Numbered from the stretch's first letter, positions 6,136 through 56,395 are shown. The stretch is DNA of 64,000 nt from an uncultured Ignavibacteriota bacterium (GCA_903900335.1 CAIUMP010000022.1:62001-126000), one strand, 5' to 3'. The notes: generated by a model from the letters alone, not told the origin. Made by a program: numbers and translations.

Positions 6136-6139
6136 GTGC

Positions 6140-7324: not shown

Positions 7325-7335
7325 TCTCGATCAGA

Positions 7336-18343: not shown

Positions 18344-18722
18344 TAGTTAGAGGCGTTGTATCTCTGCGCTCACAGAATTCTCTACTCCCTGGATTTGACA
18401 GATCCATGAATGACTTGAACCCAAATTCTGGATTTTGCACGAGGTCCGAATAATCTTATTATATTTGATACGATTTCTAGCAAGTCCCACCGCGAATGGT
18501 CGGTCATTCGTGCTTGCGCTTCGATACTTGTTTGCTTTGCCCTGATCGTGTTTGCCATTTCACTCTTGTGAGTTCTGCTCGCTGGAGATTTGACAGCCAT
18601 TGTTGTGGCACCCTAGTAGATGATCGACCATCTAATGTTATTCTCTTTTTCGTGTCAGGATAGTTGCTCGCCCCACGAGTGCTGCTGCCGGACTTTTGCC
18701 AAAGACAAAAATCGTTTTGCCA
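18344..18722. other. Intergenic leader region of the collagen-like gene
   Basis: About 380 bases without a credible gene. The only recognisable element is the promoter-like pair at 18433-18467; if used, it gives a leader of nearly 250 bases. No riboswitch or small-RNA fold is recognised. Confidence 0.5.
18433..18467 (+). promoter_or_regulatory. Putative promoter of the collagen-like surface protein gene
   Basis: TTTTG (18433-18437) and TATATTTG (18460-18467) match the Bacteroidota -33 and -7 boxes with a 22-base spacer, slightly longer than the 19-21 normally seen. Confidence 0.42.
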
Positions 18723-21700: not shown

Positions 21701-21776
21701 CACGAACGCAGCGGGCAACGTGGCACACGGCGGCGCGAAAGCGACATACGTTTTTGGGGGCGGTTCGTGGCACTGA
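18723..21776 (+). CDS. Collagen-like and YadA-head-like surface protein
   Basis: 1017 residues from ATG 18723 (an ATG nine codons upstream is possible). Signal peptide 1-26, ending VQAQ. A beta-rich N-terminal domain (about 35-150, ISYQGAIS) is the type found ahead of fibre-like proteins in this phylum. Gly-X-Y repeats span about residues 284-534, then YadA/Hep_Hag head-like repeats with SxxAxG steps (about 610-830), and a C-terminal section with [18 protein letters not shown]. No YadA membrane anchor or T9SS tail is visible; the end is VFGGGSWH. A trimeric fibre at the cell surface is inferred. Confidence 0.82.
19698..20237 (+). repeat. Fifteen tandem 36-bp repeats encoding a collagen-like tract
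   Basis: Exactly 540 bases, 15 units of 36 bp, each coding a dodecapeptide close to [12 protein letters not shown]. Variation is confined mainly to third codon positions and two Ala-to-Ser changes. Near-identical units suggest recent expansion or homogenisation, and the copy number is probably variable between strains. The wider Gly-X-Y tract runs from about 19574 to 20324. Confidence 0.93.
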
Positions 21777-38360: not shown

Positions 38361-40628
38361 ATGCAGGAAGACCTTCAACACGAGAATCTCTCATCCGCGG
38401 CCCCGGGCCAAACAGACCAGCAAGATCTGGCAGTCTCAAATCATTCAGATATTTCGCAATCCCAGACTACCGATAGCGTAAATGAGGGAGAACTCAGCTC
38501 TACTGGAGCTGGGGAGCTTAGTGCTTCACGCGCGCCAGCCGCAACAGCAAGCAGCTACAGAGATATCATTGCCGAGCGCCTAGCTCGCCAAGGACAGCCC
38601 CGCAGCAGCGCTCAATCGCAGGCATCCCGACCGATGGCTCACGCCTCCGACGTAGAGAATTCGCCGAGTCGCCCCACGGCTCCGGTGACCAAGGCAAGCA
38701 AGGCCGCTGGGTCTCCAGAGAGCGAGAGCGGCACCCTTTCCGAAGAAATTGATGCGCAAACCAAGTCGCAGGAAATTTCATCCACAGAGTCAAGTCCAAT
38801 TCAGGAAGCAGGACAAACGGAGTCTGCAGGTCTATCCAGCAGAGAGCGAGCACGCCTGCGCCAGCAGGAGCGTGCCGAGTTGCGTCGCGGCGGCGGTCAG
38901 CGCCGCCCGGCACCGGCCGCGGCCGAGGGTACCGATGATTCGGTCATAGCTGAATCACCCGCGGACGGGTCGCCAATGGCAAAGGCAGAATCCACTGTTT
39001 CGCAACCGAAACCGGAGCTAATCCGAAGGAGCCAGCGCGAAGAGCGCAGCGCTCGTGAAGAAAGAGCCCCAAGAGAAGAACGGGCTGATCGGGAGGAGCG
39101 CACTCCACGCGAAGATCGACAACCGCGTGATGAGCGCCCAGCCCGTGAGCCGCGGCCCGAACGCGAGCCGCGTATCGAGCGTGAACCGCGATCTGAGAGC
39201 GACGCTCGCCCAGAACGTGAAGGTCGCCCAGAACGTGAAGGTCGGCCCGAGCGTGAGCCGCGCGTTGAACGCGAACCGAGACCCGATCGGCCTCAGCGCG
39301 GGGACCGCCCAGCTCGCGGCCCTCGAGAAGATGCACCACTCCAGACGGCAGTTCGCACTCGAGAAGAGCGTCCCCGAGACGCTTCCGAACGACCCCGCGA
39401 TGGGGGGTTGGTAAAGAGATCGGAGATCGGAGCACCGATTCGTAGACCGGATGCAAAGCCCGCGCTTTCCGATTTAAAAGGTGGCGAGCCAAAGCAGACC
39501 GAGCGCGCATCCGAGTCGGCACGCACATTGGCAATGAAGACCGGTATCTCGGTTGTCATTCCGCTCTTTAACGAACAGGATTCACTTCGCGAACTTACTG
39601 CAGCTCTCAAGCAGCAGCTGCTCCGTCTCGCTGGCTCGCGCTATGAGATTCTCTATATTAATGATGGCTCTACGGATCGCTCTGGCGACATCCTCCAGGA
39701 CATCCTTGCGACCAGTTCGCGAGTGACGGCGATAACCTTCCGCCGAAACCAAGGCAAATCCGCTGCGCTTGCGGCGGGATTCGCGGAGGCACAGTATGGC
39801 ATCGTTATTACGATGGATGCTGACCTGCAGGACGATCCTCGCGAATTTTCCAATCTGATTGCCAAACTTGCTGAAGGGTACGATCTTGTAAGCGGCTGGA
39901 AGAAGAAGCGCCACGATCCGATCACCAAGACGCTTCCAAGCAAATTCTTCAATGCTGTAACAGGCATCTTCTCTGGTATTAGCCTCCACGATTTCAATTG
40001 TGGGCTGAAAGCTTATCGCAAGGAAGTGACAGATCGGTTGAATGTCTATGGCGAACTTCACCGCTACCTCCCTGCACTGGCGCACTGGGAAGGATTCCGG
40101 GTAGCGGAGATTCCTGTGGTCCACCATCCGCGCAAATTTGGTAAGTCGAAGTTCGGTTCGAGCCGGTTCTTCAAGGGCTTTCTTGATCTACTGAGCATAG
40201 TCTTTACGAATCGCTACGGCAAGCGGCCGTTGCACTTGTTCGGCACGATCGGCACGCTGCTCTCACTGGTAGGCCTTGGCATTGATGGGTATATCACTGC
40301 CGAATGGGCAATGGGACTGACGGCATTGTCAAACCGCCCGATATTGCAGCTCGGAGTGCTATTGATCTTGGTTGGTGTCCAATTGGTCTCACTGGGTCTC
40401 CTCGGTGAGATGATCGTTAAGAATTCGAATACTCGAGCCAATCTCGCTTACTCGAAGGAGAAGGGTAAACCATCGGCAGAAATGCGCGAGAGACAAGCAT
40501 CACGACGCGCCAACATGGCCGCTGGGGGCCCTCGAACTCCGCGACCAGGCGGACGACAACCTCGTGGACCTCGGCCTGAAGGATCCGCGCCAGCCTCTGG
40601 AGACAGGCGACCGGCCCCCAAGCGATAA
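38361..40628 (+). CDS. GT2 glycosyltransferase with a 390-residue disordered charged N-terminus
   Basis: 755 residues. Residues 1-390 are low-complexity: first Ser/Gln/Glu-rich, then an Arg-Glu-Pro repeat zone (about 222-340) with steps like REPRPEREPR. From Met392 comes a GT2 catalytic domain (SVVIPLFNEQDSL, INDGSTDRS, DADLQDDP, FNCGLKAYR) and two membrane helices near 640 and 680, the DpgS/polyprenyl-phosphate glycosyltransferase layout, and a basic Pro/Arg tail. The normal family length is about 320-350, so this is an added N-terminal extension. No ribosome-binding site precedes Met392. The GT9 gene follows after 20 bases. Confidence 0.88.
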   Translation: MQEDLQHENLSSAAPGQTDQQDLAVSNHSDISQSQTTDSVNEGELSSTGAGELSASRAPAATASSYRDIIAERLARQGQPRSSAQSQASRPMAHASDVENSPSRPTAPVTKASKAAGSPESESGTLSEEIDAQTKSQEISSTESSPIQEAGQTESAGLSSRERARLRQQERAELRRGGGQRRPAPAAAEGTDDSVIAESPADGSPMAKAESTVSQPKPELIRRSQREERSAREERAPREERADREERTPREDRQPRDERPAREPRPEREPRIEREPRSESDARPEREGRPEREGRPEREPRVEREPRPDRPQRGDRPARGPREDAPLQTAVRTREERPRDASERPRDGGLVKRSEIGAPIRRPDAKPALSDLKGGEPKQTERASESARTLAMKTGISVVIPLFNEQDSLRELTAALKQQLLRLAGSRYEILYINDGSTDRSGDILQDILATSSRVTAITFRRNQGKSAALAAGFAEAQYGIVITMDADLQDDPREFSNLIAKLAEGYDLVSGWKKKRHDPITKTLPSKFFNAVTGIFSGISLHDFNCGLKAYRKEVTDRLNVYGELHRYLPALAHWEGFRVAEIPVVHHPRKFGKSKFGSSRFFKGFLDLLSIVFTNRYGKRPLHLFGTIGTLLSLVGLGIDGYITAEWAMGLTALSNRPILQLGVLLILVGVQLVSLGLLGEMIVKNSNTRANLAYSKEKGKPSAEMRERQASRRANMAAGGPRTPRPGGRQPRGPRPEGSAPASGDRRPAPKR

Positions 40629-42087: not shown

Positions 42088-42117
42088 AAGAGGGAATGAC
42101 CTAAATCATTCCCTCTT
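42088..42117 (-). terminator. Terminator at the end of the ASST-like array
   Basis: AAGAGGGAATGA pairs perfectly with TCATTCCCTCTT; on the minus strand TTTTGCG follows. It ends transcription of the gene that stops at 42154. Confidence 0.82.
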
Positions 42118-42153: not shown

Positions 42154-43959
42154 TCAATGAACTACTGTAAAAGGCACAGTACTGCTCGCCTGGGACGTTC
42201 GTAGAACGCAGTAATACATTCCGTTCGGAAACGTCGATGTTGGGATACTCACCTTCTGCGACGAACCAGTGCTCCTCCCTGCAAAGACTTGTTCGATCTG
42301 CCGGCCTAACATGTCGCGAAGCACTATTGAGACTTCGCTTGTGGCAGCGGTGGAAAACGTTACTGCATATCTATCTGCATTTTCATCAATAGAGCAGCTC
42401 AACAGACCACCAGCAGTGGTCGGACCCGAGGTGGCTACGGATGCCGTGCCTGAAGCAGCAGAGGGATACTTCAGCGTTCGGTAGGAGAAGACAGGCAAGA
42501 AGCTCTCCGCTGTCATTTCAAATAAAAGGCTGTCATCGGGCGTGACCTCACTTGAAATAAGGCTTAGCATATTTCCTACGGAGTCGCTCGTGGAGTTTTG
42601 TCCCCAACCAATGAAGGTATTGCCATTCGGGAGCCTTTGGACAGACCCCATGGAGGAAGCCCACACCGGCGGCTCATGACGATGCTGCCACACCAACCAT
42701 GCCTGCATTTTCTGCTCATCAATGACGTATTCCACGGCTCGACTCTCCGGTTTCGGATTCACGCCATTAGTACCCCGAAAATTACCATTGTCAAAAAGCG
42801 TCATGTGGCCATGTGGGAGCCAACGGGCATCATGCTGATAGCTGAACCCCAGCGAATCATTAGGAAATTGGAACTGGTTGTGTAGGCCTCCGAGTCGCCA
42901 GATGATCGCCCCTGTCTTCCCGTCGATCTTGGTGATCTCACTCAAATTTCTGTTCGACAATAGGTAGTTGCCAAGTGAATCAATCTCGATCGAATTCGAA
43001 TGTTGGAAGTCAATTTGGTGTGTGGATAGATCCTCGTGATTCGCATCAAGAATGCTATAATGATCTATTCCTCGCCACTCGAAGACGAGCGCATCGGACG
43101 CATCAAAATGTTGAATCACATTACTCAGAACCGTCGAAGCCGAATCTCCACCCGAGACCATTTGTCGCATATCTCGTTTCGTCCTGAGCGTGCCGATCAA
43201 CGTATAACTTCCATCGGGGGAAATGAGTAACTCGTGTAGATCCGTTTGTGCTCCGTTCGCACACCCATAGACTCGCACCTGTTGAAAATTCGTATCGACC
43301 GCAATAAACTTGGCGATCAAGCCATCAAAATACGTCCAAAGTCCGTTGGGTTGTTTCTGAAAATCCATTGCCTGCGCTTGGAAGGTCTTCTGGACGAGCC
43401 CGTCCTGATCCAAAACGACCAGGTCACTGAACTGAGGGTTGCCATACGTCGCCAGAAATATCTTCCCGGGCGTTGGGTTGTTGTCAACGGTGACTGTGAA
43501 AGTCGGCAACTCCTGCGCCGAGCCTACTGTAGCACACTTGATTCCAGCGGACTCATCAACCGACTGCATGCTTTCCGTTGTGAATGCAAAAGTATCCCGA
43601 GCCGTGGAGCCCCCTAGCAATCGCACGGACAACCGCACCTGGACACGTTCGCCGAAACTAAATGGGAGGGTTGGATGAAATACTATTGTATTCCGATCCA
43701 ACGACAAGGTAGTTACACCAGCATGTAGACCTGAGAGAGAACCAATCACGTCATAATCGGCATGGGATAGAAAGGCCGGATCAAAGCTCACCGGACTTGT
43801 CACGCCAATAGCCGTAACTCGAGAAACTTCAGTAGCACCTGCCATCGGATACCTCCTGACCACAGAGAAACCCGTGCCCGAACCGGCGGTCGCTGTCCTC
43901 AGCCCAGCGAAGGCCGTCATCGCTAGGACGAAAATTAATACGAGCGTCCGTGACTTCAT
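42154..43959 (-). CDS. T9SS-exported arylsulfotransferase-like protein, paralogue 1
   Basis: 601 residues, signal peptide 1-25. Big_5/SbsA Ig-like domain at about 30-140 (VRRYPMAGATEVSRVTAIGV). The ASST-type propeller (about 165-500, PF14269-like) has HSNSIEIDSLGNYLLSNRN, KIDGKTGAIIWRLGG, YQHDARWLPHGHMTLFDNG and GSVQRLPNGNTFIGWG. The last 75 residues are a T9SS type A sorting tail (IVLRDMLGRQIEQ, FPNGMYYCVL). It would be secreted or surface-bound; sulfate transfer is only a family inference and the characterised ASSTs are distant. Last gene of the array. Confidence 0.87.
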   Translation of the reverse strand: MKSRTLVLIFVLAMTAFAGLRTATAGSGTGFSVVRRYPMAGATEVSRVTAIGVTSPVSFDPAFLSHADYDVIGSLSGLHAGVTTLSLDRNTIVFHPTLPFSFGERVQVRLSVRLLGGSTARDTFAFTTESMQSVDESAGIKCATVGSAQELPTFTVTVDNNPTPGKIFLATYGNPQFSDLVVLDQDGLVQKTFQAQAMDFQKQPNGLWTYFDGLIAKFIAVDTNFQQVRVYGCANGAQTDLHELLISPDGSYTLIGTLRTKRDMRQMVSGGDSASTVLSNVIQHFDASDALVFEWRGIDHYSILDANHEDLSTHQIDFQHSNSIEIDSLGNYLLSNRNLSEITKIDGKTGAIIWRLGGLHNQFQFPNDSLGFSYQHDARWLPHGHMTLFDNGNFRGTNGVNPKPESRAVEYVIDEQKMQAWLVWQHRHEPPVWASSMGSVQRLPNGNTFIGWGQNSTSDSVGNMLSLISSEVTPDDSLLFEMTAESFLPVFSYRTLKYPSAASGTASVATSGPTTAGGLLSCSIDENADRYAVTFSTAATSEVSIVLRDMLGRQIEQVFAGRSTGSSQKVSIPTSTFPNGMYYCVLRTSQASSTVPFTVVH

Positions 43960-44080
43960 CGTGAGAATTCTAAGGTGCACAGTATCACTGCGCCACCGAA
44001 AGGCTCTACAACGAATTGCAACGCTTGAATTTACTGCCCTTTGACCCACCCGGTGTACAATCATAATTCAGGAAGAATGC

Positions 44081-45877
44081 TTACTTGCCTAACAAAATCG
44101 GTCTGACAAGGGTACCTGTACTTGAATTCAATACGCAGTAATACAGACCGTTCGCTAATGCCTCCGTAGCGAAGCTGGCTCCTTGTACTAGCCCCGAAGC
44201 TGCTCCCTCGTAAATCTGCTTCACTTCTCTGCCAAGAATATCCCGGAATGTGATCCGCACCGAACTACCGCCTTCGCTGTGGAATAAAACAGAATATCCG
44301 TCCGAAGTCGGACTGAGCGACAAAGTCAATTCCGCCGCAGATATCAAGGCAGGGTGCGAAGCTGCAACGGATAGCGGTGCGGCCGCTGGATACTTAAGTG
44401 CGCGGTACGAACGGACAACAGGGGTCGCGTCCAGATACATTTCGAAGACCACGCTGTCGTCGGTCGTGACTTCAGTCGCCGCCAAGCTGAGTGATGGGCC
44501 ACCTGCTGCCAATGCCATGTTCTGTCCCCACCCAATGAAAGTATTCTCGTTCGGAAGTCTCTGTACAGAACCCATGGAAGGCGACCAAACAGGAGGGTTG
44601 TGGTGGAATTGCCAGACTAACCAAGCCATCCGATTCTTCTCGTCAAGATAATACTCCGCAGCCCGACTCTCTGGCGGGAGCGGCGCCGAACCGAGACCAT
44701 GAAAGTTGCCATTGTCAAACATGGTCAGATGCCCGTGAGGTAGCAGTCGAACGTCGTGCTGATAACTGAATCCAAGCGTGTCGTTCTGTATGGCGAATTG
44801 ATTGTTGAGCCCTCCAAATCGCCAAAGGATCGCACCAGTCTCTGCATCGATCTTCGTAATTTCGCTCAGATTTCTATTAGACAAAAGGTAGTTACCGCTT
44901 TCGTCCTGGTCGATGGAGTTAGCATGCTCGTAGTCGATGATGGAGCTTTTGAGATCCTCGTGATTTGCGTCAAGCACACTATAGTGATCAATTCCTCTCC
45001 ATTCAAATACCAGCGCATCCGATTTGTCAAATCGCTGAAGGACGTTGCTCACAATGATCGACGCGGAGTCTCCTCCTGCCGCCTGCTGGCGCATGTCCAT
45101 CGTTGTACGAATTATCCCAATCAAGGAGTAACTTCCATCGGGAGAAAGGAGCAGCTCGTGCAGATCCGTGGCAACGCCGTTGGCGCACGCGTAGGTATGA
45201 ACCTTCTTGAAATTCGAATCTACAGCGATAAATGTGCTGCTAATACCGTCAAAATACGTCCAAGTCCCGTTGGGTTGCAGCTGAAAATTCATTGCCTGAG
45301 CTGGAAGGCTCTTCTGCAACTGCCCCTGCTCATTCAGGATCATGAGGTCGCTGAATTGAGGAGAACCGTAGGTGGCGAGGAATATCCTTCCTGGCGTTGG
45401 GTTGTTGTTCACGCTAACCTTTACACCAGGCACGTCGGGTGGATTGTTCAGAGTGCCGATCGGGAAGTTTGGAGGCACAACAAGATGTGCACGCTCCGTA
45501 ACAAAACTGAAGGTGTCCGCGATCTTGGAGCCGCCCACTGCCAATCCAGAAAAGTAGACAGAAACCCGCTCGAACAGTCCAAAGGGCACGACAGGCTTAA
45601 AAATCACGGTCTTGAGATCCGCGGAGTAACTTATCGAACCGGCATGTAGCCCAGAACTCGCCCCAATTACATCATAGCGTATGATCGAGCCCGCGTACTG
45701 ATCAAAGGCAGAAGCGGAGGTTATCCCGATACCTGTAAGAGACGACACCTCAGCGGCACCCGATTGCGGATACGTCCGGATAACGCCGACGGTCGAGCTT
45801 GCGGCTGAGATCGCAGGAACAGTCGAGACGAAGCTCAACGAGAGAAAAAAGACAAATACGTGCCTGAATTGCATTTC
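44081..45877 (-). CDS. T9SS-exported arylsulfotransferase-like protein, paralogue 2
   Basis: 598 residues, signal peptide about 1-24 (HVFVFFLSLSFVSTVPA). Same domain order as its neighbours: Ig-like domain (RTYPQSGAAEVSSLTGIGI), ASST-like propeller (VNNNPTPGRIFLATYGSP, NRNLSEITKIDAETG, FSYQHDVRLLPHGHLTMF), T9SS tail (ITFRDILGREVKQ, ALANGLYYCVL). It is closest to paralogue 1 (shared LATYGxPQFSDL, VDxNFxxVxxYxCANG). ATG 45877 (MQFRH) is preferred because the signal peptide then starts properly; ten codons upstream are open. Confidence 0.87.
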   Translation of the reverse strand, partial: EMQFRHVFVFFLSLSFVSTVPAISAASSTVGVIRTYPQSGAAEVSSLTGIGITSASAFDQYAGSIIRYDVIGASSGLHAGSISYSADLKTVIFKPVVPFGLFERVSVYFSGLAVGGSKIADTFSFVTERAHLVVPPNFPIGTLNNPPDVPGVKVSVNNNPTPGRIFLATYGSPQFSDLMILNEQGQLQKSLPAQAMNFQLQPNGTWTYFDGISSTFIAVDSNFKKVHTYACANGVATDLHELLLSPDGSYSLIGIIRTTMDMRQQAAGGDSASIIVSNVLQRFDKSDALVFEWRGIDHYSVLDANHEDLKSSIIDYEHANSIDQDESGNYLLSNRNLSEITKIDAETGAILWRFGGLNNQFAIQNDTLGFSYQHDVRLLPHGHLTMFDNGNFHGLGSAPLPPESRAAEYYLDEKNRMAWLVWQFHHNPPVWSPSMGSVQRLPNENTFIGWGQNMALAAGGPSLSLAATEVTTDDSVVFEMYLDATPVVRSYRALKYPAAAPLSVAASHPALISAAELTLSLSPTSDGYSVLFHSEGGSSVRITFRDILGREVKQIYEGAASGLVQGASFATEALANGLYYCVLNSSTGTLVRPILLGK

Positions 45878-46113
45878 GAACGTGGGCTCAATTGCGATTC
45901 CTAACAAATACCGCTCTTTGAGTCATGAGTAAAAATGTGAAGAACAGAGAGTACTTCTAAGTGCGCCGCCGCCAAGGTATTTCAATCCATTCCAGACGAT
46001 GCCATGGTAGTGCGTTCAATTTTCGAGACACTCCCTATTGAATTCTCAATAAATGTGCCGAGGTACCGCACCCTTGCCTCAGCGTAGTGGGTCTCCTTCG
46101 CAATACAAGAACG

Positions 46114-46153
46114 CGAATTCATCATCCGGTTACAAAAATTCATGATGAATTCG
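46114..46153. repeat. Stem-loop downstream of the BNR propeller gene
   Basis: CGAATTCATCAT and ATGATGAATTCG are perfect 12-bp inverted repeats with a 16-base loop, 14 bases after the stop of the gene to the right. There is no T run, so it may stabilise the mRNA 3' end instead of terminating. Confidence 0.5.
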
Positions 46154-46166
46154 TATTCTCGCGAAA

Positions 46167-48266
46167 TCATGGAAGTTGGAGCTTGATCGTCTGATAGCCA
46201 GAATTGCTGCTCATTGTCAGAAAATAGCTCCCATTCGCCAATCCTGTGGGCAGTGACATGTGGAAACTGGGGTTGCCCGCCGTTGCGGTCGCTGTTCCAA
46301 CGCGGTTTCCAAGTACATCGGAAAGCGCGAATCTCGCTTCGCCTGAGACTGATGGCGCATACTGAATCCCGAGTTGGTGATCGGCGATCAGCCTTGCACT
46401 GAAACTTCCTGTGGTAGGTGTGGCTGACACGCTCGCCACGCTCGGACGCTTATGACTCCACAGGCCATATCCTATTGTGCCAACGTAGATGTTCTTCGAA
46501 TCCATGGAAACCGTCTCGAGTGCGATACCCGCCGGAAGGGAATCCGCCATCGTCGACCAGCTTCCTCCCCCATCCGTTGAGATCAGCACCGCGCTTTCGA
46601 CTCCAGCCAATACGAGGTCGCCGTCGGAAGCCATTGCAAATATCCTTGATGTAGCAAGCGGCCCATTCACGCTTTTCCACGTCGTGGCTTCGTCGGTGGA
46701 TTCGAAAAGGCCGGAGCTTGATCCAATCACGATTCGCGACGATGTATGAGCAAAGCCCGTCCATTGCATTGAATTGATCGGATCGCCGCTCAGCGTGTCC
46801 CAGCTATTTCCTTCTGAGAGCGTACGGAACACCTTCACATTTCCCACAGCGTATACAGGGCCATTGTCGTAGAACACTTTCGATACGAAGGATGGAATCG
46901 TCGATCCAGTAGATGCTTCCCAGGAGGCACCACTATTGTGCGATTGAAGTGTGCCGGAGGTCCCAGTGATCCCAGCATACAGTACGCGCGGCGTGATGCA
47001 GATGGAGGTTGCATAAGTCGCTGTCGCAGGGAAGCTAGTCGGTGCCCACGTGGTACCGTGATCGGTTGAATGGAGAATGCCTTCGCCACTCGTCGCAGCG
47101 AACAACTCGTCGTTCAGGATGGCCATGTCAGTGATACCACGCTTCGAGCCGCTGGAATACAAATTCCAGCTTTGTCCGGCGTCATCCGAATGCCAGCCAT
47201 AGCCATAATCCGCATCGTTCGTGCCAGCGAGCAGTACGGGTGAGACTCCACTTTGGAACGTCGCTGGCCGAGCCACTGAGACGCTTACCGACGTCACACC
47301 ATTATTTACCGGTTGCCATTGAATATTCGCTCTGTCCGTTCTTACCACGCCGACGATCTGCCCCCCAAGGTAGAGTTTGTCATGATGCAGTGCGAGGGCC
47401 ATATACGAGGACGGGATCGTGCTATCGCTCAAAGATGACCAATGCGCGCCGAGATCGAACGTTCGATATACCTTTTGCCCATTCGCTAAGACGTAGAGTG
47501 TAGAATCCGCCGAGACGAAAGCGTTTCCACTTTCGTCGATCGGCAAGCCGTTCCGAGTTGAGGTCCAGTGATTTCCTGAGTCGTCTGAGCGATATATTCC
47601 ACGGAGCGTCCCCGCGAAGACCGAGCCCTTGAAAAAAGAAAGCGAGAACACATAGCGATCATTGCCAGCGGCAATGCCCGTGTCGCAAGCAGTCCAGTTG
47701 ATCCCATTGTCTGTCGAACGAAATACGCCCTTGCCATTCGAACCGGCGAACATCAGCCCCTCATTTCGTATGATCGCAGGGAATTGTCCATTCGATGGGA
47801 GCCCGGATGCCATCGGAAGCCAGCTTTGACCATCATCTGTTGACCTATAGAGACCTTGCCCGCTAACTGACGCAATTAAGTCAGAATCCGACGCGAGTAG
47901 CGACTGGACTTTCCCACCGGGCAGCGTGCTCCCAATTTGCGACCAGGACGCACCGCTATTTGTTGTCTTGTATAGCCATCTGCCAGTCCCTGCCCAGACT
48001 TCGGAGCCCCGAACGGCAAGCGACAGCACCACATCGTGACGTGGAATTGTAGCGCCTATGGATCTCCAGTTGGCACCATCGTCGGTGGACACGAAGAGAT
48101 CTCCATAAGAGTTGCCCAATCCTGTGCCAGCGAATAGCGTTGTCCCATTAGAGATGATGGCATTCACGGTCGCACCCTCCGGTCCACTTTGGCGAACCCA
48201 TTGTGCGGAAAGATTTGGTGCGAGTAGCAGTAAGGAAAGTGCTAATTGCAGACGGCGGGATTGCAT
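46167..48266 (-). CDS. T9SS-exported BNR/YCF48-type beta-propeller protein
   Basis: 699 residues. Signal peptide 1-21 (ALSLLLLAPNLSAQ). Ten or more repeats of about 45-55 residues follow, with Asp-box/BNR-like steps STDDGANW, TTNSGASW, STDDGQSW, STDNGINW, SDDSGNHW, STDHGTTW and STDGGGSW, as in YCF48/HCF136 or sortilin-type propellers, and the C-terminal 75 residues are a T9SS sorting tail (RFALSDVLGNRVG, GLANGSYFLTM). No catalytic Asp/Arg triad of a sialidase was seen. It lies between the two pairs of ASST-like genes in the same direction. Confidence 0.87.
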   Translation of the reverse strand: MQSRRLQLALSLLLLAPNLSAQWVRQSGPEGATVNAIISNGTTLFAGTGLGNSYGDLFVSTDDGANWRSIGATIPRHDVVLSLAVRGSEVWAGTGRWLYKTTNSGASWSQIGSTLPGGKVQSLLASDSDLIASVSGQGLYRSTDDGQSWLPMASGLPSNGQFPAIIRNEGLMFAGSNGKGVFRSTDNGINWTACDTGIAAGNDRYVFSLSFFKGSVFAGTLRGIYRSDDSGNHWTSTRNGLPIDESGNAFVSADSTLYVLANGQKVYRTFDLGAHWSSLSDSTIPSSYMALALHHDKLYLGGQIVGVVRTDRANIQWQPVNNGVTSVSVSVARPATFQSGVSPVLLAGTNDADYGYGWHSDDAGQSWNLYSSGSKRGITDMAILNDELFAATSGEGILHSTDHGTTWAPTSFPATATYATSICITPRVLYAGITGTSGTLQSHNSGASWEASTGSTIPSFVSKVFYDNGPVYAVGNVKVFRTLSEGNSWDTLSGDPINSMQWTGFAHTSSRIVIGSSSGLFESTDEATTWKSVNGPLATSRIFAMASDGDLVLAGVESAVLISTDGGGSWSTMADSLPAGIALETVSMDSKNIYVGTIGYGLWSHKRPSVASVSATPTTGSFSARLIADHQLGIQYAPSVSGEARFALSDVLGNRVGTATATAGNPSFHMSLPTGLANGSYFLTMSSNSGYQTIKLQLP

Positions 48267-48422
48267 TGCGGATCGGGAATTGGATTAGTGTGGGTCCTTT
48301 CCATACCGACACGGCAAGGTGCGTGAAAGTTACGCCCGTCAATCAGTGGCGCGTTCCGCTATTCCGAGCGAAGATTGTGAAGTTCTCCTCCTGGCACACT
48401 AGGTGAGTACGAGCTACCCTCT

Positions 48423-50243
48423 TTAATGCTTCACCGCAAAACGTCGAATGACCTCCCCGCTGGCCGATTGGATGATGCAGTAATACACGCCATTCGGAAT
48501 TCCGGTAACCGGCAAATGAACCCGCTGACTTCCGCCAATCAACATCCCCTCGAAAAGCGGCACCACAACTCTTCCCAACACGTCCCGAATTGCGACAGAG
48601 TAACGCTCTGGTTCACTGGTCTGGAACAGTACATCATAACCGCCTGATGACTCCTCCACCCTTGGCTCCAGTAAGCTGCTTTGTGCATCGCCGACAGAGG
48701 ACTCCGGCCTTCCTGAAGGCGGAGCCACCCACGCATGCTTGCGGACACGATATGAGTAAACAGGTGCGACTCCATTGTCAAGCGCCAATTCGAAAACGAC
48801 ACTTCCATCCTTCGTCACCTCCGTTGCCGTCACTGTGGGCTCTGTTCCCGGAGCACCAAGCGCCATGTTCTGCCCCCAACCAATGAGCGTGTTACCATTG
48901 GGAAGCCGCTGCACGGAACCCATCGCCGAGGCCCACACGCGTGGTGTGTGTCGATACTGCCACACCAATTCGGCTGTCATCGTAGCTGTGTCGAGCGCGT
49001 ATTCGACCGCGCGGCTCTCGGGCAGCTTTCCATTATATCGGAAATTGCCATTGTCTAAGAACAAGATGTGTCCATTCGGCAGGGTGCGAGCATCGTGCTG
49101 ATAGCTGAATGGAAGCGAATCGTTCAAGAGCGTGAATTGATTGTGAGCACCACCGAATCTCCAAATGATGGCTCCGGTCCGACCGTCGATCTTGGTGATC
49201 TCACTGAGGTAGCGGTTAGAGATGAGATAATTGCCCACAGAGTCAATGTCAATTGAATTGGCGTGCTCGAATTCTACCTTAGGGCCCGTGAGGTTCTCGT
49301 GGACCGCATCCTGCACATCATAGTGATCAATGCCGCGCCATTCGAAGATGAGGTTGTCAGAATCATCGAATCGCTGAAGCACATTACTGATGATAGTCGC
49401 AGCAGAATCACCTCTAATGACAACGCCTCTCAAATCTTTTGTGGTCTGGATCTGACCCATCAGCACATAACCGCCATCGCCAGTGCATCTCAGCTCGTGC
49501 AGATCGGTCAGCGCACCGTTGGAAGCCTGAAAAGAACGGATCCTGGTGAACGAGGAGTCCATAGAGATGAATGTTCGCTCGACATTGCTAAAGTACGTCC
49601 ACATTCCATTCGGCTGTGGCTCGAATCCCCAGGCGTCTGCGGATGTAAATCTCCGAAGTAATCCATCTTCATTCGTCACAAGGAGATTAGTCATTCCGGG
49701 CACACCCATGGAGTTCAGATAGAGGCGACCGGGGGTAGGATTCGTGTCGATCGTTACGACTATCTCAGGCAAAAGCGAAGTGGTGCTCGCGGGCGGCCCT
49801 TTCGGTGGAGGAGCTGGATGGTGCTGCTCGGTGGTGAATTGAAAGGTGTCCAGGATCGCTCCCCCATTCCAAAACTTAATATGCACTTGCACTTGCACCG
49901 TTTCGAGGAGATCGAACGCGGCGAACGGTTGGAAAATGGCGGTGGTCTTATCCGACGACAGGATGATCCGTCCGCTATGGTGACCGGAGCGTGAGCCAGT
50001 CACCTCAAAACTGGACGTATCAGCTACTACCGAAGGATGGAATTTTGCGGTCCCCGTGATGCCGATGTCCGTACTGCACGACACTTCGACCGCGCCCGGG
50101 ATCGGATACTGCCGCAACATCGAATTTCCGGGAAGACAGAGCGGATCACCAACGAGAACGCGTGGCGTTGCCGCGCCTGTAGTGGGACTAACAAGCGAGA
50201 ACGTTAGCGATAGAAACACGCAGAGAAGAGCCCGTAACTTCAT
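48423..50243 (-). CDS. T9SS-exported arylsulfotransferase-like protein, paralogue 3
   Basis: 606 residues from ATG 50243 (MKLRALLCVFLSLTFSLV), signal peptide to about 23. After it comes GDPLCLPG, shared only with paralogue 4, then the Ig-like domain (LRQYPIPGAVEVSCSTDIGI), the ASST-like propeller (HELRCTGDGGYVLMGQIQ, HANSIDIDSVGNYLISNR, FSYQHDARTLPNGHILF) and the T9SS tail (VAIRDVLGRVVVP, GIPNGVYYCII). Histidines in YQHDAR and the HE in HELR are kept in all four copies. A 17-codon extension upstream is open but has no signal character. Confidence 0.87.
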   Translation of the reverse strand: MKLRALLCVFLSLTFSLVSPTTGAATPRVLVGDPLCLPGNSMLRQYPIPGAVEVSCSTDIGITGTAKFHPSVVADTSSFEVTGSRSGHHSGRIILSSDKTTAIFQPFAAFDLLETVQVQVHIKFWNGGAILDTFQFTTEQHHPAPPPKGPPASTTSLLPEIVVTIDTNPTPGRLYLNSMGVPGMTNLLVTNEDGLLRRFTSADAWGFEPQPNGMWTYFSNVERTFISMDSSFTRIRSFQASNGALTDLHELRCTGDGGYVLMGQIQTTKDLRGVVIRGDSAATIISNVLQRFDDSDNLIFEWRGIDHYDVQDAVHENLTGPKVEFEHANSIDIDSVGNYLISNRYLSEITKIDGRTGAIIWRFGGAHNQFTLLNDSLPFSYQHDARTLPNGHILFLDNGNFRYNGKLPESRAVEYALDTATMTAELVWQYRHTPRVWASAMGSVQRLPNGNTLIGWGQNMALGAPGTEPTVTATEVTKDGSVVFELALDNGVAPVYSYRVRKHAWVAPPSGRPESSVGDAQSSLLEPRVEESSGGYDVLFQTSEPERYSVAIRDVLGRVVVPLFEGMLIGGSQRVHLPVTGIPNGVYYCIIQSASGEVIRRFAVKH

Positions 50244-50503
50244 AACGAATTTTAGAGGGCAAAATAATGTCACCGCACACACATGTCGTTGCAACGCGGC
50301 GCGAGCGCGTCCGTTCCTCGTCGATCAGTTGAAAACTAAATAAAGTTGGAGCGGTGAGGCTGACCGAACCGATCACACCTCAGGGAAAGAAGCGCGTAAG
50401 AAAAGTTATCGAAGGTATTGGCTCCATCTTTGCCGGCCCCGAGAGTGCCAGGAAGTAATTGGCGCTTCAACGACGAGAGGAGTCATTGGCGCGCAACAGG
50501 GTC

Positions 50504-52321
50504 TCAGCGTTTGAGCGCGAATCGTCGCACAACCGTGCCGCTCGCCGATTGGATAATGCAGAAGTAGATACCGTTTGCGAGCCCCGCTGTGGGCAACTCG
50601 AGTTTCTGCGGGCCCCCAGCAGACATGCCCTCAAACACAGATTGGACGGATCTACCCAGCACATCGCGTACTGTTACCACGATCCACTCAGACTGAGGCG
50701 TATCGAACCAAACGGCATCACCCTCCTTGTCTGCAAAGATCGTCGGAGCGAACGAGTTCTCCCGTCGTGCGTCAAACGCCGACCATGCGTTCACTCCTGC
50801 GGCAGTGGGATAGGGGTATTTACGAGCCCGATATGAAATGAGTGGTGGTCCGGCGTTATCAAATGCTAATTCAAAAACAACCTGTTTGTCGGCGGTTACC
50901 TCTGTGGTTGTCACAGTTGAACCACCTCCTGTGCCGTTGACGGTGGCGTTCACCCCCCAACCAATGAGCGTGTTCCCGTTCGGCAATCTCTGTACCGATC
51001 CCATTCCCGCTGCGCGCACTGGTGGGCTGTGCCGGTATTCCCACACCAGCCATGCCTTCATGGTGCTGGTGTCCATGTGATACTCAACTGCACGGCTTTC
51101 CGCCTGTCTTCCGGTCTCTCGGTAATTCCCGTTATCAAAGAATGTGATGTGTCCGTTTGGTAGACGGCGCGCATCATGCTGATAGCTGAAGCCGACCGAG
51201 TCGTTCTGGATCGTGAACTGATTGTGTGCGCCTCCAAATCGCCAAATCATCGCCCCCGTTCTGCCATCGATCTTGGTGATCTCGCTCAAAGAACGGTTGG
51301 AAAGCAGGTAGTTGCCATCGGAGTCAATGTCGATCGAGTTCGCATGTTCAAAGTCGATCAACGAACTTGTCAAGTCCTCATGAATCGCATCCTTGATGTC
51401 GTAGTGGTCCAACCCGCGCCACTCAAAGACGAGACTATCCGATGCGTCGAACCGCTGGATCACGTTGCTTTCGATGGTTGCGTTTGAATCTCCACCAGCA
51501 ACGATCGGCCGCATGTCCGCCGTCGTCTTGATAACCCCGAGCATCGTATAGCTGCCGTCTGCAGAACAGATGAAGTCATGAGGATCGGCACTTACTCCGT
51601 TGGTGCATCGGTAAGAGCGAATCGGAGTAAAATTGGAGTCCATCCCCATGTGACCGCTATCAGGGCTGATGAAATACGTCCACTGCCCGTTGGGTTGAAC
51701 TTGAAAATCCATTGTCTCCGTAGGATGATACTTGAGCAGCCTTCCATCCTCATTCAAAACTAAGAGATTACCCAGATCAGGCTGCCCGGTCGAATTAAGG
51801 AATAATCGACCAGGCATCGGACTGTTATCGGCAGTCACAGTAATCAGCGGCAGCAGTGACGAAGGCTGATCCGGAGGAGTGGTCGAGTGATGCGTCAGAT
51901 GATGCTTCTTTGTTACGAACTGAAACGTGTCCGTGACGAGTGCACCACTGATCGATCTTGCTGAAAACACCACCAGGACAGTCTCGAAGAGATTGAACTC
52001 ATTCCACGGGCGGAATATCGCCGTAGCACCGTCACGTGAAAGATATACCCTGCCAGAGTGCTGGCCAGTACTGGAACCCGTAACTGTAAAACAATTTGCC
52101 GAGAGCAGCGCTGGATCGAATTTCTCACTCCCGGTAATGCCGATACCCGTACCACACAGCACCTCTGTAGCCCCCGGGATCGGATACTGGCGGAGCACCT
52201 GATGCTTGGTTAGACACACTGGATCCCCAGCAAATATGTGCGGTTTCGCTGCGCCCGAGATCGGGAGGATTAGCGAAATGGCCAGCACAACGGAAAGAGC
52301 CAGGGTACCCCGAAACTTCAT
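50504..52321 (-). CDS. T9SS-exported arylsulfotransferase-like protein, paralogue 4
   Basis: 605 residues, signal peptide about 1-23 (ALSVVLAISLILPISGA). First gene of the array. Layout is identical to paralogue 3 and the two share GDPVCL, the RQYPIPGA start of the Ig-like domain and IQSASGTVVRRFA at the C-terminus. Propeller motifs: HANSIDIDSDGNYLLSNRS, KIDGRTGAMIWRFGG, FSYQHDARRLPNGHITFF, GSVQRLPNGNTLIGWG. In the first HE motif, the usual DLHEL becomes DPHDF, the only copy with that change. Confidence 0.87.
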   Translation of the reverse strand: MKFRGTLALSVVLAISLILPISGAAKPHIFAGDPVCLTKHQVLRQYPIPGATEVLCGTGIGITGSEKFDPALLSANCFTVTGSSTGQHSGRVYLSRDGATAIFRPWNEFNLFETVLVVFSARSISGALVTDTFQFVTKKHHLTHHSTTPPDQPSSLLPLITVTADNSPMPGRLFLNSTGQPDLGNLLVLNEDGRLLKYHPTETMDFQVQPNGQWTYFISPDSGHMGMDSNFTPIRSYRCTNGVSADPHDFICSADGSYTMLGVIKTTADMRPIVAGGDSNATIESNVIQRFDASDSLVFEWRGLDHYDIKDAIHEDLTSSLIDFEHANSIDIDSDGNYLLSNRSLSEITKIDGRTGAMIWRFGGAHNQFTIQNDSVGFSYQHDARRLPNGHITFFDNGNYRETGRQAESRAVEYHMDTSTMKAWLVWEYRHSPPVRAAGMGSVQRLPNGNTLIGWGVNATVNGTGGGSTVTTTEVTADKQVVFELAFDNAGPPLISYRARKYPYPTAAGVNAWSAFDARRENSFAPTIFADKEGDAVWFDTPQSEWIVVTVRDVLGRSVQSVFEGMSAGGPQKLELPTAGLANGIYFCIIQSASGTVVRRFALKR

Positions 52322-52592
52322 AGCTTAATTCAGAGCGCGAATCAGAAGCAGCGCGCATATCAATAATAGCAACGCTTTAGAAGAATGACCGTTCCATTTA
52401 ACGAGCCTGAAAACTAAAAATATTTAGGAGGACTACTTGCCCATCCGACGTACAAGGCCGCACTCGTTAAGAAATTGCCAACGGAGACTTAATTGGTCTA
52501 TCACGCTTGACCAGGCGTCATGAATTTCGGTCTACAATTGCAGAGTCAAACAGAGGAGCGATTCTCGAAAGAGACAACTTGCATTCGCCATG

Positions 52593-53105
52593 CTACCAGA
52601 GCAGCCCCATCGCTATTGAGAATCCTACCACGGCTTGACCGTACAAAGCACTACGAGCAATGACACTACCGGGACTTCGCATCATCCCAATAGGAGTCCA
52701 TCCAGCCCACGTGATCTGATTGACCTGTAAGTCATTGCGATACGTCCGGTTTGGCCACGGAGAGCCCATGTTTATCCCCAACTGATACCCGTAGAAGGCG
52801 AGATCATCCCCCCACGTCCACCAAATGAGATTGAACGCAATCGCGGAGTTCAGTCCACACGTCTTGTATAAGAAGTAGGAAATAGCCGCCTGCGCAAGCA
52901 CCTGAATGCCTCGGAATATCCAGACCGGATTGTGGTGAATATTGACATCTAGATTCCATCCGATGTAATCGAAAAGCGAAAATGCGATGGTTACGCCGAT
53001 CACACTCTCATAGCGGTTGAGGCGTGTCGAGTCCTGAGCACGCGCAGAAGAATACAAGGCTACGGAGAGAAGACACGCGATCAGGAGTAACTTCATCGCA
53101 CTCAT
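52593..53105 (-). CDS. Membrane protein of unknown family, third in the E1 operon
   Basis: 170 residues with a signal-like start (MKLLLIACLLSVALYSSARA) and about three further hydrophobic segments (GVTIAFSLFDYIGW, ILAQAAISYFLYKT, AIAFNLIWWTWGDD); aromatic-rich. No family recognised. The ATG at 53105 overlaps the stop codon of the methyltransferase (ATGA), so translation is coupled. A shorter start at 53096 is possible. Confidence 0.65.
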   Translation of the reverse strand: MSAMKLLLIACLLSVALYSSARAQDSTRLNRYESVIGVTIAFSLFDYIGWNLDVNIHHNPVWIFRGIQVLAQAAISYFLYKTCGLNSAIAFNLIWWTWGDDLAFYGYQLGINMGSPWPNRTYRNDLQVNQITWAGWTPIGMMRSPGSVIARSALYGQAVVGFSIAMGLLW

Positions 53106-54013
53106 TTCCCCAACACTACCCCAATGACCTGCACCGCCAAATGTTCATCCGTGTCACTCTTCGCGAACCGGCTGGTTAGTCTTAGCGAGCGGAATGCTCG
53201 CATATCCTCCTCCGTCCCCCACCGCACTTCCTCATCAATCAATCGAAGCTTCGCATCACGGAATAACCTGTGGTAATCTGCGTACCGAAGTCGGTTCTGA
53301 TACGATATGGAGGAATTCACAACACTCCAAAACGCATCGGAGTGTGTGAGAAATTCGTATTTGGTAATAGAAGAATCAAAGTAAGAGAAATGATCCTTCA
53401 AATCAACGAAATGACAAGCGATCCCATCAGGAAATAGTAATCGTCGCGTTTCTGGCAAAATTCGAGCAAGCGACTCTGCGGGGATGTGTTCGAGCGTGGA
53501 GTTCGTCGAAATGAAGTCGATACTGTTTGAGGGTAAACCCGTTTCAGAAGCATCCAGTGGTGCACGGTAATCGATCCCGAAAGCTTGGAGCAGCCTCTCG
53601 GGATCCACCGGGAGCTCCCTGGGAATTGTCCTCAACTGTCGACCCGTCGCTGCTTCACACTGCTCACGGTATTCACGAAATTTCTGCACCGTATCAGATA
53701 GCAACTCTGGTCGCAAATTCCGGCGAATGTCGATGACAGTTTGATGCTCAACACCAAACGACCAATAAGCCAGCGGGCCGATCAGATCCCAGCCGGCACC
53801 AAATTCGAAACAGTGTATTTCGTTCAGCGGCTTCGAGTTGCCAAACTTCTCCCACTTCCTCAAACGATCATGCGCATAGCCAACTTTTTCCACGAACTCA
53901 CTCTGCGAAACTGGAAGTCCACCCGTCTTGCGTTGCAGGAGATAGTTCAGTTTGTCACCCTGCGGCAACCCACTAAGCACTTTCTGAACGAGGGCCTTGG
54001 CTATCCATTTCAT
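53102..54013 (-). CDS. SAM-dependent methyltransferase, class I
   Basis: 303 residues. The Rossmann-type SAM-binding section is seen as HCFEFGAGWDLIGPLAYW (motif I, about 68-85) with the acidic IDIRRN after it, then DFISTNSTLEHIP (motif IV region) and LPETRRLLFPDGIACHFVDLKDH (motif V). Substrate unknown. It starts 18 bases after the E1 stop and ends overlapping the next gene, so the three form an operon. The link to a 2-oxoacid dehydrogenase is unusual and unexplained. Confidence 0.75.
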   Translation of the reverse strand: MKWIAKALVQKVLSGLPQGDKLNYLLQRKTGGLPVSQSEFVEKVGYAHDRLRKWEKFGNSKPLNEIHCFEFGAGWDLIGPLAYWSFGVEHQTVIDIRRNLRPELLSDTVQKFREYREQCEAATGRQLRTIPRELPVDPERLLQAFGIDYRAPLDASETGLPSNSIDFISTNSTLEHIPAESLARILPETRRLLFPDGIACHFVDLKDHFSYFDSSITKYEFLTHSDAFWSVVNSSISYQNRLRYADYHRLFRDAKLRLIDEEVRWGTEEDMRAFRSLRLTSRFAKSDTDEHLAVQVIGVVLGK

Positions 54014-54031: not shown

Positions 54032-56395
54032 CTACCACTTCGCCAAACGCCCCATGGCATCCATGATCTTCGCGGGGTTCGGGAGAATCGCATCTTCCAA
54101 CACCTTTGCGAATCCAACCGGCGTGAAGATCGAACCAACGCGCATCACCGGCGCATCCAGCGACTTGAACGCGTGCTCGGTAATGAGCGCAGAGAGTTCA
54201 CCACCAAATCCGCCAGTGATCTTATCCTCATGCACAACGAGTGCACGGCCTGTCTTCTCAACCGATTTCAGAATCGCGTTGAGATCAAGCGGATAGAGCG
54301 AACGCAAATCCAGCACATCGCACTGAACGCCGCTCTCCTTCGCGAGTTCATCGGCAGCCTGGAGCGCGAAGTGCGTCGTTGTGCCGTAGGTAATGACCGA
54401 GACATCGCTGCCCTCGCGGCGCAGACGCGCTTTGCCGAATGGGATCAACTCGTTATCCGCAAGCGGATTCGCCTTTGCCTTCGGGTAATAATAGAGATAC
54501 TTCGGCTCTAAAAACATCGTCACACCACGCGTGCGCATTGCGGTGCGGATGAGACCCTGCGCATCATCAGCATAGCATGGCTCGACAACGCGAATGCCTG
54601 GGATCGTTGTGAACGTACCCTCCAAATTCTGCGAGTGATACAACCCCCCACCGATATATCCACCGCTTGCAAGACGAATGAGAATATTCGGTGAATACTG
54701 CCCGCGTGTGCGCCAATACTCGTGCGAGATCTCGATGAACGCTTCCATCGCCGGCCAGAAGTAGTCGGCAAACTCTGCACCCTCGACGCACACCCAAATG
54801 TGCTGCTGATCGACACGGCAAAAACCAGTCGCAGTGCCGAGAATAAAGTCCTCGGCGATCGGCCCGTTGAATACACGGTCGTTGCCGAACTCCTGCATCA
54901 TCCCCTTCGTCACATTGAAGACGCCGCCCTTGTTCTTCGACGCAACATCTTGTCCCCAGAGGAATGTGTTCGCGTTGAGATGGAATTCCTCCTTCAGTGT
55001 GCGATTGATACCCTCAATGAACTGCATCCCCTCATCCTTCCCGCTCGGGATGGTGAATGGATAGAATTTCGTATCAATATCATCAGCCTGGAATGTGTAC
55101 GAATTCGGGCTGACGATCTGATTTGACGGCATCACGAAATCATACACCGTCGATGGATCGGCTGGAGGCGCGGCCTCGGCCTTGTCTGCGGACTCCGCAA
55201 AGTGCTTCTTGTTCTCCTCGTGGATCGTCTCAAGCTCCGCCGCAGTTGCAACGCCTTGCTTCGTGAGCCAATCGCCAAGAAGCACCAGCGGATCGCGCAG
55301 CTTAACAGCTTCCATCTCCTCGGTCGAACGATAGAGATCGTGACGATCCGAATTCGAGTGCGAACCAATGCGCACGCAATCCGCGTGAACCATCGCCGCA
55401 CCGCGACCGCTCAAGCACCACTCGTACGCTTCCTGCATGGCGCGGTAGCTATCGAGCACATCGGTGCCATCGCAATAGGTGATGAGCAGATTGTTGAAGC
55501 CGCGCCAGTTATCGCCCACGCGGGTGTTCGCAGATTGATCTGTCACTGGGACGGAGATTCCATACTTGTTATTCTGGATGACGAAGATAGCCGGTACTTT
55601 CTCGCGCGTCGCTCCATTGACGGCCTCATAGAAGAAGCCCTCGGAAGTCCCCGACTCACCACCGGAGAAAATCGACACCGCGCCGAGTTTGTAATACTTG
55701 ATCGCTCGCGCGCAACCCGTAACATGCTGAGCATGATTGTTGGTCAGCGACGACCCATTCTGAATACCGATGGACATCTTCGCGAAGTGATTCGACATGT
55801 GGCGGCCGCCGCCAGCAATATCGGTGTCCTTCGAAAGCCCATTCAGCACCAACTCTTCGACGGTAATTCCACCGGCGAGGCAGGTCATCAAATCGCGGTA
55901 ATACGGGAAGAGATAATCCTTCTTTTGGCGGAAGCTGAATCCCATCGCGAGCTGAATGCCTTCGTGTCCTGCGCACGGAGCGTGGTAGCTCCAACCCATC
56001 GCCTTCTTTAGGTAATTCGCTGCGGCAATATCGGTGATGCGCCCCAGATCCATGAGGCGATACCACTCCATCAGCGTCTCTTTCGACACGCCAGACTGCG
56101 CGAACGTACCCTTGAACGAACGCGCACCATCCGCGAGCGGACCGCGAAGCTCCGCACCATTCGGCATCGTTTGCAGCGAAGCCGGGGCGATATGCGGCGA
56201 CAGCGTCTCGGCTAACAGCTCGATCTCGGTATCCATGATCTGCACGGACGAATCCATCGCGCCGTCGCCCGTTGTGGCGGCAACGCCGTTCTTGCCGTTC
56301 ATCGACCCGTTCGTCGAGGCGACAACTGTTCCTTCGGACTGTTCGAGCACAGCCGTACCATTCGATCCATTCTTATTCTTCGCTGACTTAGCCAT
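54032..56395 (-). CDS. Fused E1 alpha/beta component of a 2-oxoacid dehydrogenase
   Basis: 787 residues joining both E1 halves. An N-terminal Asn/Ser/Gly-rich linker (1-90) precedes the alpha part (about 105-405) and beta part (about 450-780). The thiamine-diphosphate region reads SGGESGTSEG (244-253) to NNKYG (275-279), where relatives have GDG...NN; the beta part has EDFILGTATGF, GGLYHSQNLE and LDLRSLYPLDL. Likely branched-chain or pyruvate-type decarboxylation. No E2/E3 genes lie next to it. Lead gene of an operon with a methyltransferase and a membrane protein. Confidence 0.9.
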   Translation of the reverse strand: MAKSAKNKNGSNGTAVLEQSEGTVVASTNGSMNGKNGVAATTGDGAMDSSVQIMDTEIELLAETLSPHIAPASLQTMPNGAELRGPLADGARSFKGTFAQSGVSKETLMEWYRLMDLGRITDIAAANYLKKAMGWSYHAPCAGHEGIQLAMGFSFRQKKDYLFPYYRDLMTCLAGGITVEELVLNGLSKDTDIAGGGRHMSNHFAKMSIGIQNGSSLTNNHAQHVTGCARAIKYYKLGAVSIFSGGESGTSEGFFYEAVNGATREKVPAIFVIQNNKYGISVPVTDQSANTRVGDNWRGFNNLLITYCDGTDVLDSYRAMQEAYEWCLSGRGAAMVHADCVRIGSHSNSDRHDLYRSTEEMEAVKLRDPLVLLGDWLTKQGVATAAELETIHEENKKHFAESADKAEAAPPADPSTVYDFVMPSNQIVSPNSYTFQADDIDTKFYPFTIPSGKDEGMQFIEGINRTLKEEFHLNANTFLWGQDVASKNKGGVFNVTKGMMQEFGNDRVFNGPIAEDFILGTATGFCRVDQQHIWVCVEGAEFADYFWPAMEAFIEISHEYWRTRGQYSPNILIRLASGGYIGGGLYHSQNLEGTFTTIPGIRVVEPCYADDAQGLIRTAMRTRGVTMFLEPKYLYYYPKAKANPLADNELIPFGKARLRREGSDVSVITYGTTTHFALQAADELAKESGVQCDVLDLRSLYPLDLNAILKSVEKTGRALVVHEDKITGGFGGELSALITEHAFKSLDAPVMRVGSIFTPVGFAKVLEDAILPNPAKIMDAMGRLAKW

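What the first reader, a model, noticed from the sequence alone, without database searches (positions are those of the whole stretch)
42154..52321. Tandem array of four T9SS-exported arylsulfotransferase-like paralogues
Four neighbouring genes in one direction share signal peptide, Big_5-like domain, ASST-type propeller and T9SS tail, at 598-606 residues each. Family knowledge: PF05935-type ASSTs transfer sulfate between phenols; the PF14269-type members to which these look closer are mostly untested. Such a local expansion of one exported enzyme suggests a set of related substrates or a variable surface coat.
Basis: partly seen in the sequence, partly recalled or inferred. Interest (0 to 1): 0.75.

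Follow-up and report, generated by a model that had tools for sequence, protein, structure and literature searches.

The report
Tandem surface-exported arylsulfotransferase-type enzymes
A bacterium carries four neighbouring copies (eight in the genome) of an exported enzyme that very probably moves sulfate groups between molecules at the cell surface, in a genome where we found none of the usual genes tested for making activated sulfate or for cutting sulfate off.

Summary
All four proteins (597-606 aa) pass the Pfam cut-offs of both ASST families (PF14269, PF05935). The propeller model of one superposes on Streptomyces Cpz4 (TM 0.86) and E. coli AssT (TM 0.79), and all four keep AssT's His252, His356, Asn358, Arg374 and His436 (the sulfated nucleophile). 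The T9SS tail is supported, and the genome encodes SprA and PorU. The Big_5-like domain is sub-threshold or absent by profile in these four, but is supported by the fold and by half of the relatives.

The array is not unique. A congener has a quartet at the same place; two of its genes are one-to-one orthologues, the other two were remodelled in each lineage. Tandem growth recurs: 27 of 45 genes in the taxonomic family.

Beyond the finding, the genome has no detectable sulfatase (PF00884), APS kinase (PF01583) or PAPS sulfotransferase of PF00685/PF13469. Most likely these are surface PAPS-independent sulfuryl transferases fed by aryl sulfates from outside. The acceptor is unknown; sugar hydroxyls are as plausible as phenols. 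New variant of a known kind.

The parts
50504..52321 (-). Gene A: exported ASST-type protein, 605 aa (signal peptide, Ig-like domain 42-137, propeller 157-505, T9SS tail 527-603)
   Evidence: one-to-one orthologue in G003
48423..50243 (-). Gene B: exported ASST-type protein, 606 aa (open frame extends to 50294)
   Evidence: one-to-one orthologue in G003
46167..48266 (-). Interrupting gene: BNR/Sortilin/Ycf48-like protein, 699 aa, sub-threshold T9SS tail; not an ASST
   Evidence: absent from the quartet of G003
44081..45874 (-). Gene C: exported ASST-type protein, 597 aa (open frame extends to 45907)
42154..43959 (-). Gene D: exported ASST-type protein, 601 aa (open frame extends to 44064)
50807..51853 (-). 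Gene A ASST-type propeller (residues 157-505)
51176..51178 (-). Gene A His382, counterpart of the sulfated nucleophile His436 of E. coli AssT (B His383, C His373, D His376)
52371..52395 (-). GGAAC-N16-CGTT element 49 bp before the ATG of A; resembles an ECF-sigma promoter (inferred)
   Evidence: conserved before the G003 orthologue
50293..50317 (-). GGAAC-N16-CGTT element 49 bp before the ATG of B (inferred promoter)
   Evidence: conserved before the G003 orthologue
46114..46143 (-). Conserved hairpin element upstream of C (ATGAATTTTTGTAACCGGATGATGAATTCG), also upstream of the third gene of the G003 quartet; role unknown
   Evidence: the core ATGAATTNTTGTA occurs in the 84 loci only upstream of ASST genes
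42090..42115 (-). Inverted repeat GAGGGAATGA-N6-TCATTCCCTC followed by TTTT just after D: likely terminator of the run
   Evidence: Sequence read; a similar imperfect hairpin follows the last gene in G003. Not listed by the consensus scan
54032..56395 (-). Fused dehydrogenase E1 gene: conserved landmark beside the array in G003 and G002, not itself part of the system

Best explanation
The four genes encode surface-exported, PAPS-independent sulfuryl transferases of the ASST superfamily. Each is made with a signal peptide and passed across the outer membrane by the type IX secretion system, which trims or anchors it through the C-terminal domain (inferred from the tail and from SprA and PorU in the genome). 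At the surface, the propeller's histidine (His382 in A) takes a sulfuryl group from an aryl-sulfate donor and hands it to a hydroxyl acceptor in a ping-pong reaction (inferred from the fold and from conservation of the AssT active site). Because the genome appears to lack APS kinase, the two PAPS-sulfotransferase families tested, and sulfatases, the donor most likely comes from outside the cell, for example phenolic sulfates of the environment (inferred). The copies arose by repeated tandem duplication and probably differ in donor or acceptor preference; acceptors may be phenols or sugar hydroxyls (inferred).
For: Profiles: both ASST Pfams over their cut-offs in all four and matched in 50 of 50 relatives. 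Solved relatives by sequence profile: Cpz4 E 2.5e-65, E. coli AssT E 7.8e-18. Fold: propeller model pLDDT 92.9; Cpz4 TM 0.86, rmsd about 3 A; AssT TM 0.79; first non-ASST match TM 0.59. Active site: AssT His252/His356/Asn358/Arg374/His436 (named in PMC13426309) align with A His248/His326/Asn328/Arg343/His382 and are present in A-D; 60 of 67 relatives keep all five. Export: TIGR04183, SprA_N 178 bits, PorU 687 bits, over its cut-off. Donor: no PF00884, PF13469, PF00685 or PF01583 in a genome rated 100% complete, with positive controls. Constraint: dN 0.11-0.13 in the propeller between orthologues with synonymous sites near or at saturation.
Against: No activity has been shown for any member of this clade. 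The Thr501 counterpart of AssT could not be fixed. Other PAPS-sulfotransferase families (PF03567, PF09037, PF17784, PF19798) and the rest of sulfate assimilation were not searched, and absence rests on draft assemblies. No partner gene recurs beside the arrays, so the neighbourhood gives no substrate clue. One G003 copy has lost the nucleophile (His to Arg).
Confidence: 0.66

Rival explanations
1. Narrower version on acceptors: the enzymes sulfate the cell's own surface glycans or lipids, as Cpz4 sulfates a sugar hydroxyl, with scavenged aryl sulfates as donors; the copies serve different positions.
For: Closest solved relative is Cpz4, which prefers sugar hydroxyls (PMC13426309). GT9 and GT2 glycosyltransferase genes lie next to gene D and polysaccharide export and flippase genes lie in the window.
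Against: Those glycosyltransferases are on the other strand and are not beside the matching quartet of G003. Identity to Cpz4 is about 26%, too low to read acceptor choice.
Confidence: 0.3
2. Narrower version on acceptors: the enzymes modify environmental phenols (peat or soil phenolics) by moving sulfate between phenols, the copies covering different phenols.
For: Most characterised ASSTs act on phenols with broad range (PMC13426309). The nearest named relative comes from a palsa sample, an environment rich in phenolics (general knowledge).
Against: A swap between two phenols gives no net sulfation, so the benefit is unclear. No phenol-handling gene recurs next to the arrays.
Confidence: 0.3
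3. The fold has been co-opted as a surface binding or adhesive propeller, with catalysis lost or irrelevant.
For: No donor-making or sulfatase genes found; one G003 copy has His to Arg at the nucleophile; secreted Ig-plus-propeller proteins are often binders (general knowledge).
Against: All five catalytic residues are kept in 60 of 67 members, and the propeller is the best conserved part of the protein.
Confidence: 0.12
4. The array is a rapidly varying surface coat with antigen-like diversification.
For: Tandem copies; lower identity in the N-terminal domain and linkers than in the propeller.
Against: A and B keep one-to-one orthologues in another species, divergence is old (synonymous sites saturated), and no recombination or inversion feature was recognised beside them.
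Confidence: 0.04

Closest known systems
Cpz4 of Streptomyces sp. (caprazamycin sulfotransferase; PDB 9kf4, 9kf6)
   Same: Same propeller (TM 0.86, about 26% identity) and same motifs LHD, HxNS, SxR, QHD
   Different: The 472-residue Cpz4 chain aligns from the propeller on: no counterpart of the N-terminal Ig-like domain was aligned and no T9SS tail; it is one enzyme of an antibiotic pathway, acting on a sugar hydroxyl
E. coli AssT (PDB 3elq, 3ets, 4p05)
   Same: Propeller with N-terminal beta-sandwich; His252, His356, Asn358, Arg374 and His436 all conserved here
   Different: About 17% identity; periplasmic homodimer (PMC13426309) with a DsbL-made disulfide (general knowledge); no conserved cysteine pair in A-D; here T9SS-tailed and in tandem copies
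ASST of Bacteroides vulgatus (BvAST)
   Same: ASST from Bacteroidota with histidine sulfation reported (PMC13426309)
   Different: Sequence not available here, so not compared; B. vulgatus also has a predicted PAPS-dependent sulfotransferase
Arylsulfotran_2 (PF14269)
   Same: All four pass its cut-off, with slightly better scores than for PF05935
   Different: No paper in the open library links arylsulfotransferase with T9SS

Membership tests
ASST superfamily (PF14269 / PF05935) | Profile match over curated cut-off | tested here: met
   all four, both families
ASST superfamily (PF14269 / PF05935) | Propeller fold like solved ASSTs | tested here: met
   (gene A): Cpz4 TM 0.86, AssT TM 0.79; first non-ASST 0.59
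ASST superfamily (PF14269 / PF05935) | Catalytic His436 and sulfuryl-binding His252, His356, Asn358, Arg374 | tested here: met
   by profile alignment; spatial geometry not measured
ASST superfamily (PF14269 / PF05935) | Thr501 counterpart | tested here: inconclusive
   Falls in the MGSVQ loop of A (440-442); a Ser is near but the register is unsure
ASST superfamily (PF14269 / PF05935) | PAPS-independent sulfuryl transfer from aryl sulfates | not testable with these tools
   Needs enzyme assay
E. coli AssT-type enzymes | Structural disulfide | tested here: not met
   No cysteine pair conserved in A-D; DsbL/DsbI genes not searched
Type IX secretion substrates, type A | C-terminal sorting domain TIGR04183 | tested here: met
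   Over cut-off in A and D, 1.5-3 bits under in B and C; 36 of 50 relatives match
Type IX secretion substrates, type A | Secretion machinery in the genome | tested here: met
   SprA_N and PorU; other components not searched
Type IX secretion substrates, type A | Signal peptide | tested here: inconclusive
   Hydrophobic N-terminus, helix 2-18; no predictor run
Big_5 Ig-like domain (PF13205) | Profile match over cut-off in these four | tested here: not met
   A 17.3 and B 15.3 bits against 23.6; none in C, D. 25 of 50 relatives match at E <= 0.01 and the region folds as a beta-sandwich in A

The most novel reading that the evidence does not exclude
A lineage that makes no PAPS and has no sulfatase performs sulfation entirely outside the cell, by displaying a tandem-expanded set of ASST-type enzymes that draw sulfuryl groups from environmental aryl sulfates and place them on its own surface glycans or on surrounding phenols.
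Probability: 0.2. Interest if true: 0.7.

Novelty: new variant of a known kind. Interest (0 to 1): 0.42.

Why it matters
The natural donors and acceptors of most ASSTs are unknown (PMC13426309). A clade in which the enzyme carries a T9SS tail, has been multiplied in tandem again and again, and sits in a genome without detectable APS kinase, common PAPS sulfotransferases or sulfatases is a clean place to ask what these enzymes are for: any sulfation seen would have to draw on outside donors. The paralogue sets, with constant catalytic residues and differing loops, are also useful for mapping acceptor choice.

Tried and rejected
Contiguity: rejected, a BNR gene interrupts. Conserved partner gene beside the arrays: all-against-all comparison of neighbours found only locus-specific synteny, no shared partner. 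Promoter and terminator scan: no excess over shuffles. Rfam on the whole window: nothing. Literature on T9SS with arylsulfotransferase, and on soil Bacteroidetes expansions: no papers in the open library. PDB code 9KF4: no paper. Whole-protein fold search gave rmsd of 15-18 A to the ASSTs, presumably from domain orientation, so the propeller was folded and searched alone. The fungal aryl sulfotransferase paper PMC11677658 concerns PAPS-dependent PF00685 enzymes, not this family. Weak APS-kinase matches in G003 and G004 (about 21 bits over two thirds of the model) were judged probably other P-loop kinases, not followed up.

Full report
What is there. On the minus strand, in order of transcription, are A (50504-52321), B (48423-50243), a BNR/Sortilin/Ycf48-like gene (46167-48266), C (44081-45874) and D (42154-43959). 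A-D are 597-606 aa and clearly homologous (46-54% to D over full length; propellers 55-66%). Gaps are 121-292 bp, and a strong hairpin with a T run follows D.

Domain make-up. All four pass the cut-offs of PF14269 and PF05935, PF14269 with slightly better E-values. TIGR04183 is over its cut-off in A and D and just under in B and C. Big_5 is sub-threshold in A and B and not seen in C and D, but 25 of 50 relatives match it. The AlphaFold model of A (pLDDT 88) shows an N-terminal beta-sandwich (42-137), a propeller (157-505) and a C-terminal beta domain (527-603), joined by linkers of lower confidence.

Fold and active site. The propeller alone folds at pLDDT 92.9 and superposes on Cpz4 with TM 0.86 and rmsd about 3 A, and on E. 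coli AssT with TM 0.79; the first non-ASST match is at 0.59. A profile of 50 relatives aligns with both in sequence. Reading that alignment, AssT His252, His356, Asn358, Arg374 and the sulfated His436, named in PMC13426309, fall on A His248, His326, Asn328, Arg343 and His382. A-D have all of them. Of 67 relatives 60 keep all five; the exceptions are a G003 copy with His382 to Arg, three with Ala at His248, two with Pro at Arg343, and one fragment with a gap. Limits: residue pairing comes from a profile alignment, not from measured geometry, and the Thr501 counterpart is unresolved.

Export. The genome encodes SprA and a PorU sortase well over its cut-off, so T9SS export is plausible. Signal peptides were judged by eye.

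Origin of the array. The genome holds eight family members: four here, one on contig C4, two in tandem on C19 and one on C17. In the tree, A and B each pair with one G003 gene (support 99 and 100), while C and D group with the C4 copy (97) and apart from the two remaining G003 genes. The array therefore existed before the two species split, and its second half was remodelled in each. Elsewhere in the taxonomic family, G008 has an independent quartet, G007 a triplet, and several genomes pairs: 27 of 45 genes are in tandem. In a sample of the class, 55 of 119 genomes have PF14269 members, with eight the highest count seen, shared by three genomes. Recurrent tandem growth is thus a habit of the lineage, not a peculiarity of this locus.

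Selection. Between orthologues A and B of the two species the propeller is 80-81% identical while the N-terminal domain is 50-61%. Nonsynonymous divergence is 0.11-0.13 in the propeller and synonymous sites are near or at saturation. The catalytic part is under strong constraint. Forty-four propeller positions are fixed within each orthologue pair and differ between A and B, several clustered at 178-184, 194-205 and 434-439; these are candidate specificity positions, inferred only.

Cell context. In a genome rated 100% complete there is no match to sulfatase PF00884, PF13469, PF00685 or APS kinase PF01583, although the controls rang. Across seven genomes of the genus only one short sulfatase match and two marginal APS-kinase matches appear. 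If the enzymes are active, the donor is therefore likely external; this is inference and rests on absence in draft assemblies and on four families only.

Upstream elements. A and B carry GGAAC-N16-CGTT exactly 49 bp before their ATG, and the G003 orthologues carry it 54-57 bp before theirs; no other family member in hand has it upstream. It resembles an ECF-sigma promoter. The motif was noticed after looking at the sequences, and three matches in the window against 0.47 expected is modest; conservation between species is the stronger point. A different 30-bp hairpin element upstream of C (46114-46143) is kept, with one base changed, upstream of the third gene of the G003 quartet, and its core ATGAATTNTTGTA also lies before the second copy on C19; in the 84 fetched loci the core occurs only upstream of ASST genes. 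Its role is unknown.

Mechanism. Shown by computation: family, fold, catalytic residues, tail, part of the secretion machinery, history. Inferred: ping-pong sulfuryl transfer through the histidine, surface location, outside donor, division of labour among copies. Unknown: acceptor. Cpz4 prefers sugar hydroxyls and most other ASSTs were tested on phenols (PMC13426309), so both remain open.

Verdict. Real, correctly identified in kind, not unique in its lineage. New variant of a known kind: T9SS-tailed, Ig-fused, tandem-expanded ASSTs in a genome in which the usual sulfation genes tested were not found.

Noticed in passing
L063:13905-15722 (G003 C11, fourth copy): The catalytic histidine is replaced by arginine (SYQRD for SYQHD) while the rest of the site is kept: a possible pseudoenzyme, or an assembly error.
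   Followed up: partly
L050:9644-12685, L051:4905-7940, L054:2-2812: A small related clade has Ala in place of the His252 counterpart; two others (L033:1324-3885, L052:1832-4789) have Pro in place of the Arg374 counterpart.
   Followed up: no
window 46114-46143 (-), L063:11980-12009, L065:11080-11092: A hairpin-forming element (core ATGAATTNTTGTA) is conserved upstream of three ASST genes, the loop more strictly than the stem, despite diverged surroundings; found nowhere else in the fetched loci.
   Followed up: partly
window 38361-40628 (+): A GT2 glycosyltransferase preceded by nearly 400 residues of charged, repetitive sequence rich in R, E and P (EREPR-type repeats).
   Followed up: no
window 18696-21776 (+): A 1026-aa open frame with collagen-type triple-helix repeats and YadA head repeats: a likely surface fibre or adhesin.
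   Followed up: no
window 52593-54013 (-): A 170-aa protein without a Pfam match and a methyltransferase lie between gene A and the E1 gene; in G003 the E1 gene is directly followed by the array, so they were gained here or lost there.
   Followed up: partly
window 46167-48266 (-) and L067:18721-19998: The BNR-type protein that interrupts the array has a relative about 5 kb from another ASST pair in G003.
   Followed up: no
window 4486-10428 (-): Polysaccharide flippase-like and SLBB/Poly_export genes: an exopolysaccharide export region about 32 kb from the array.
   Followed up: no
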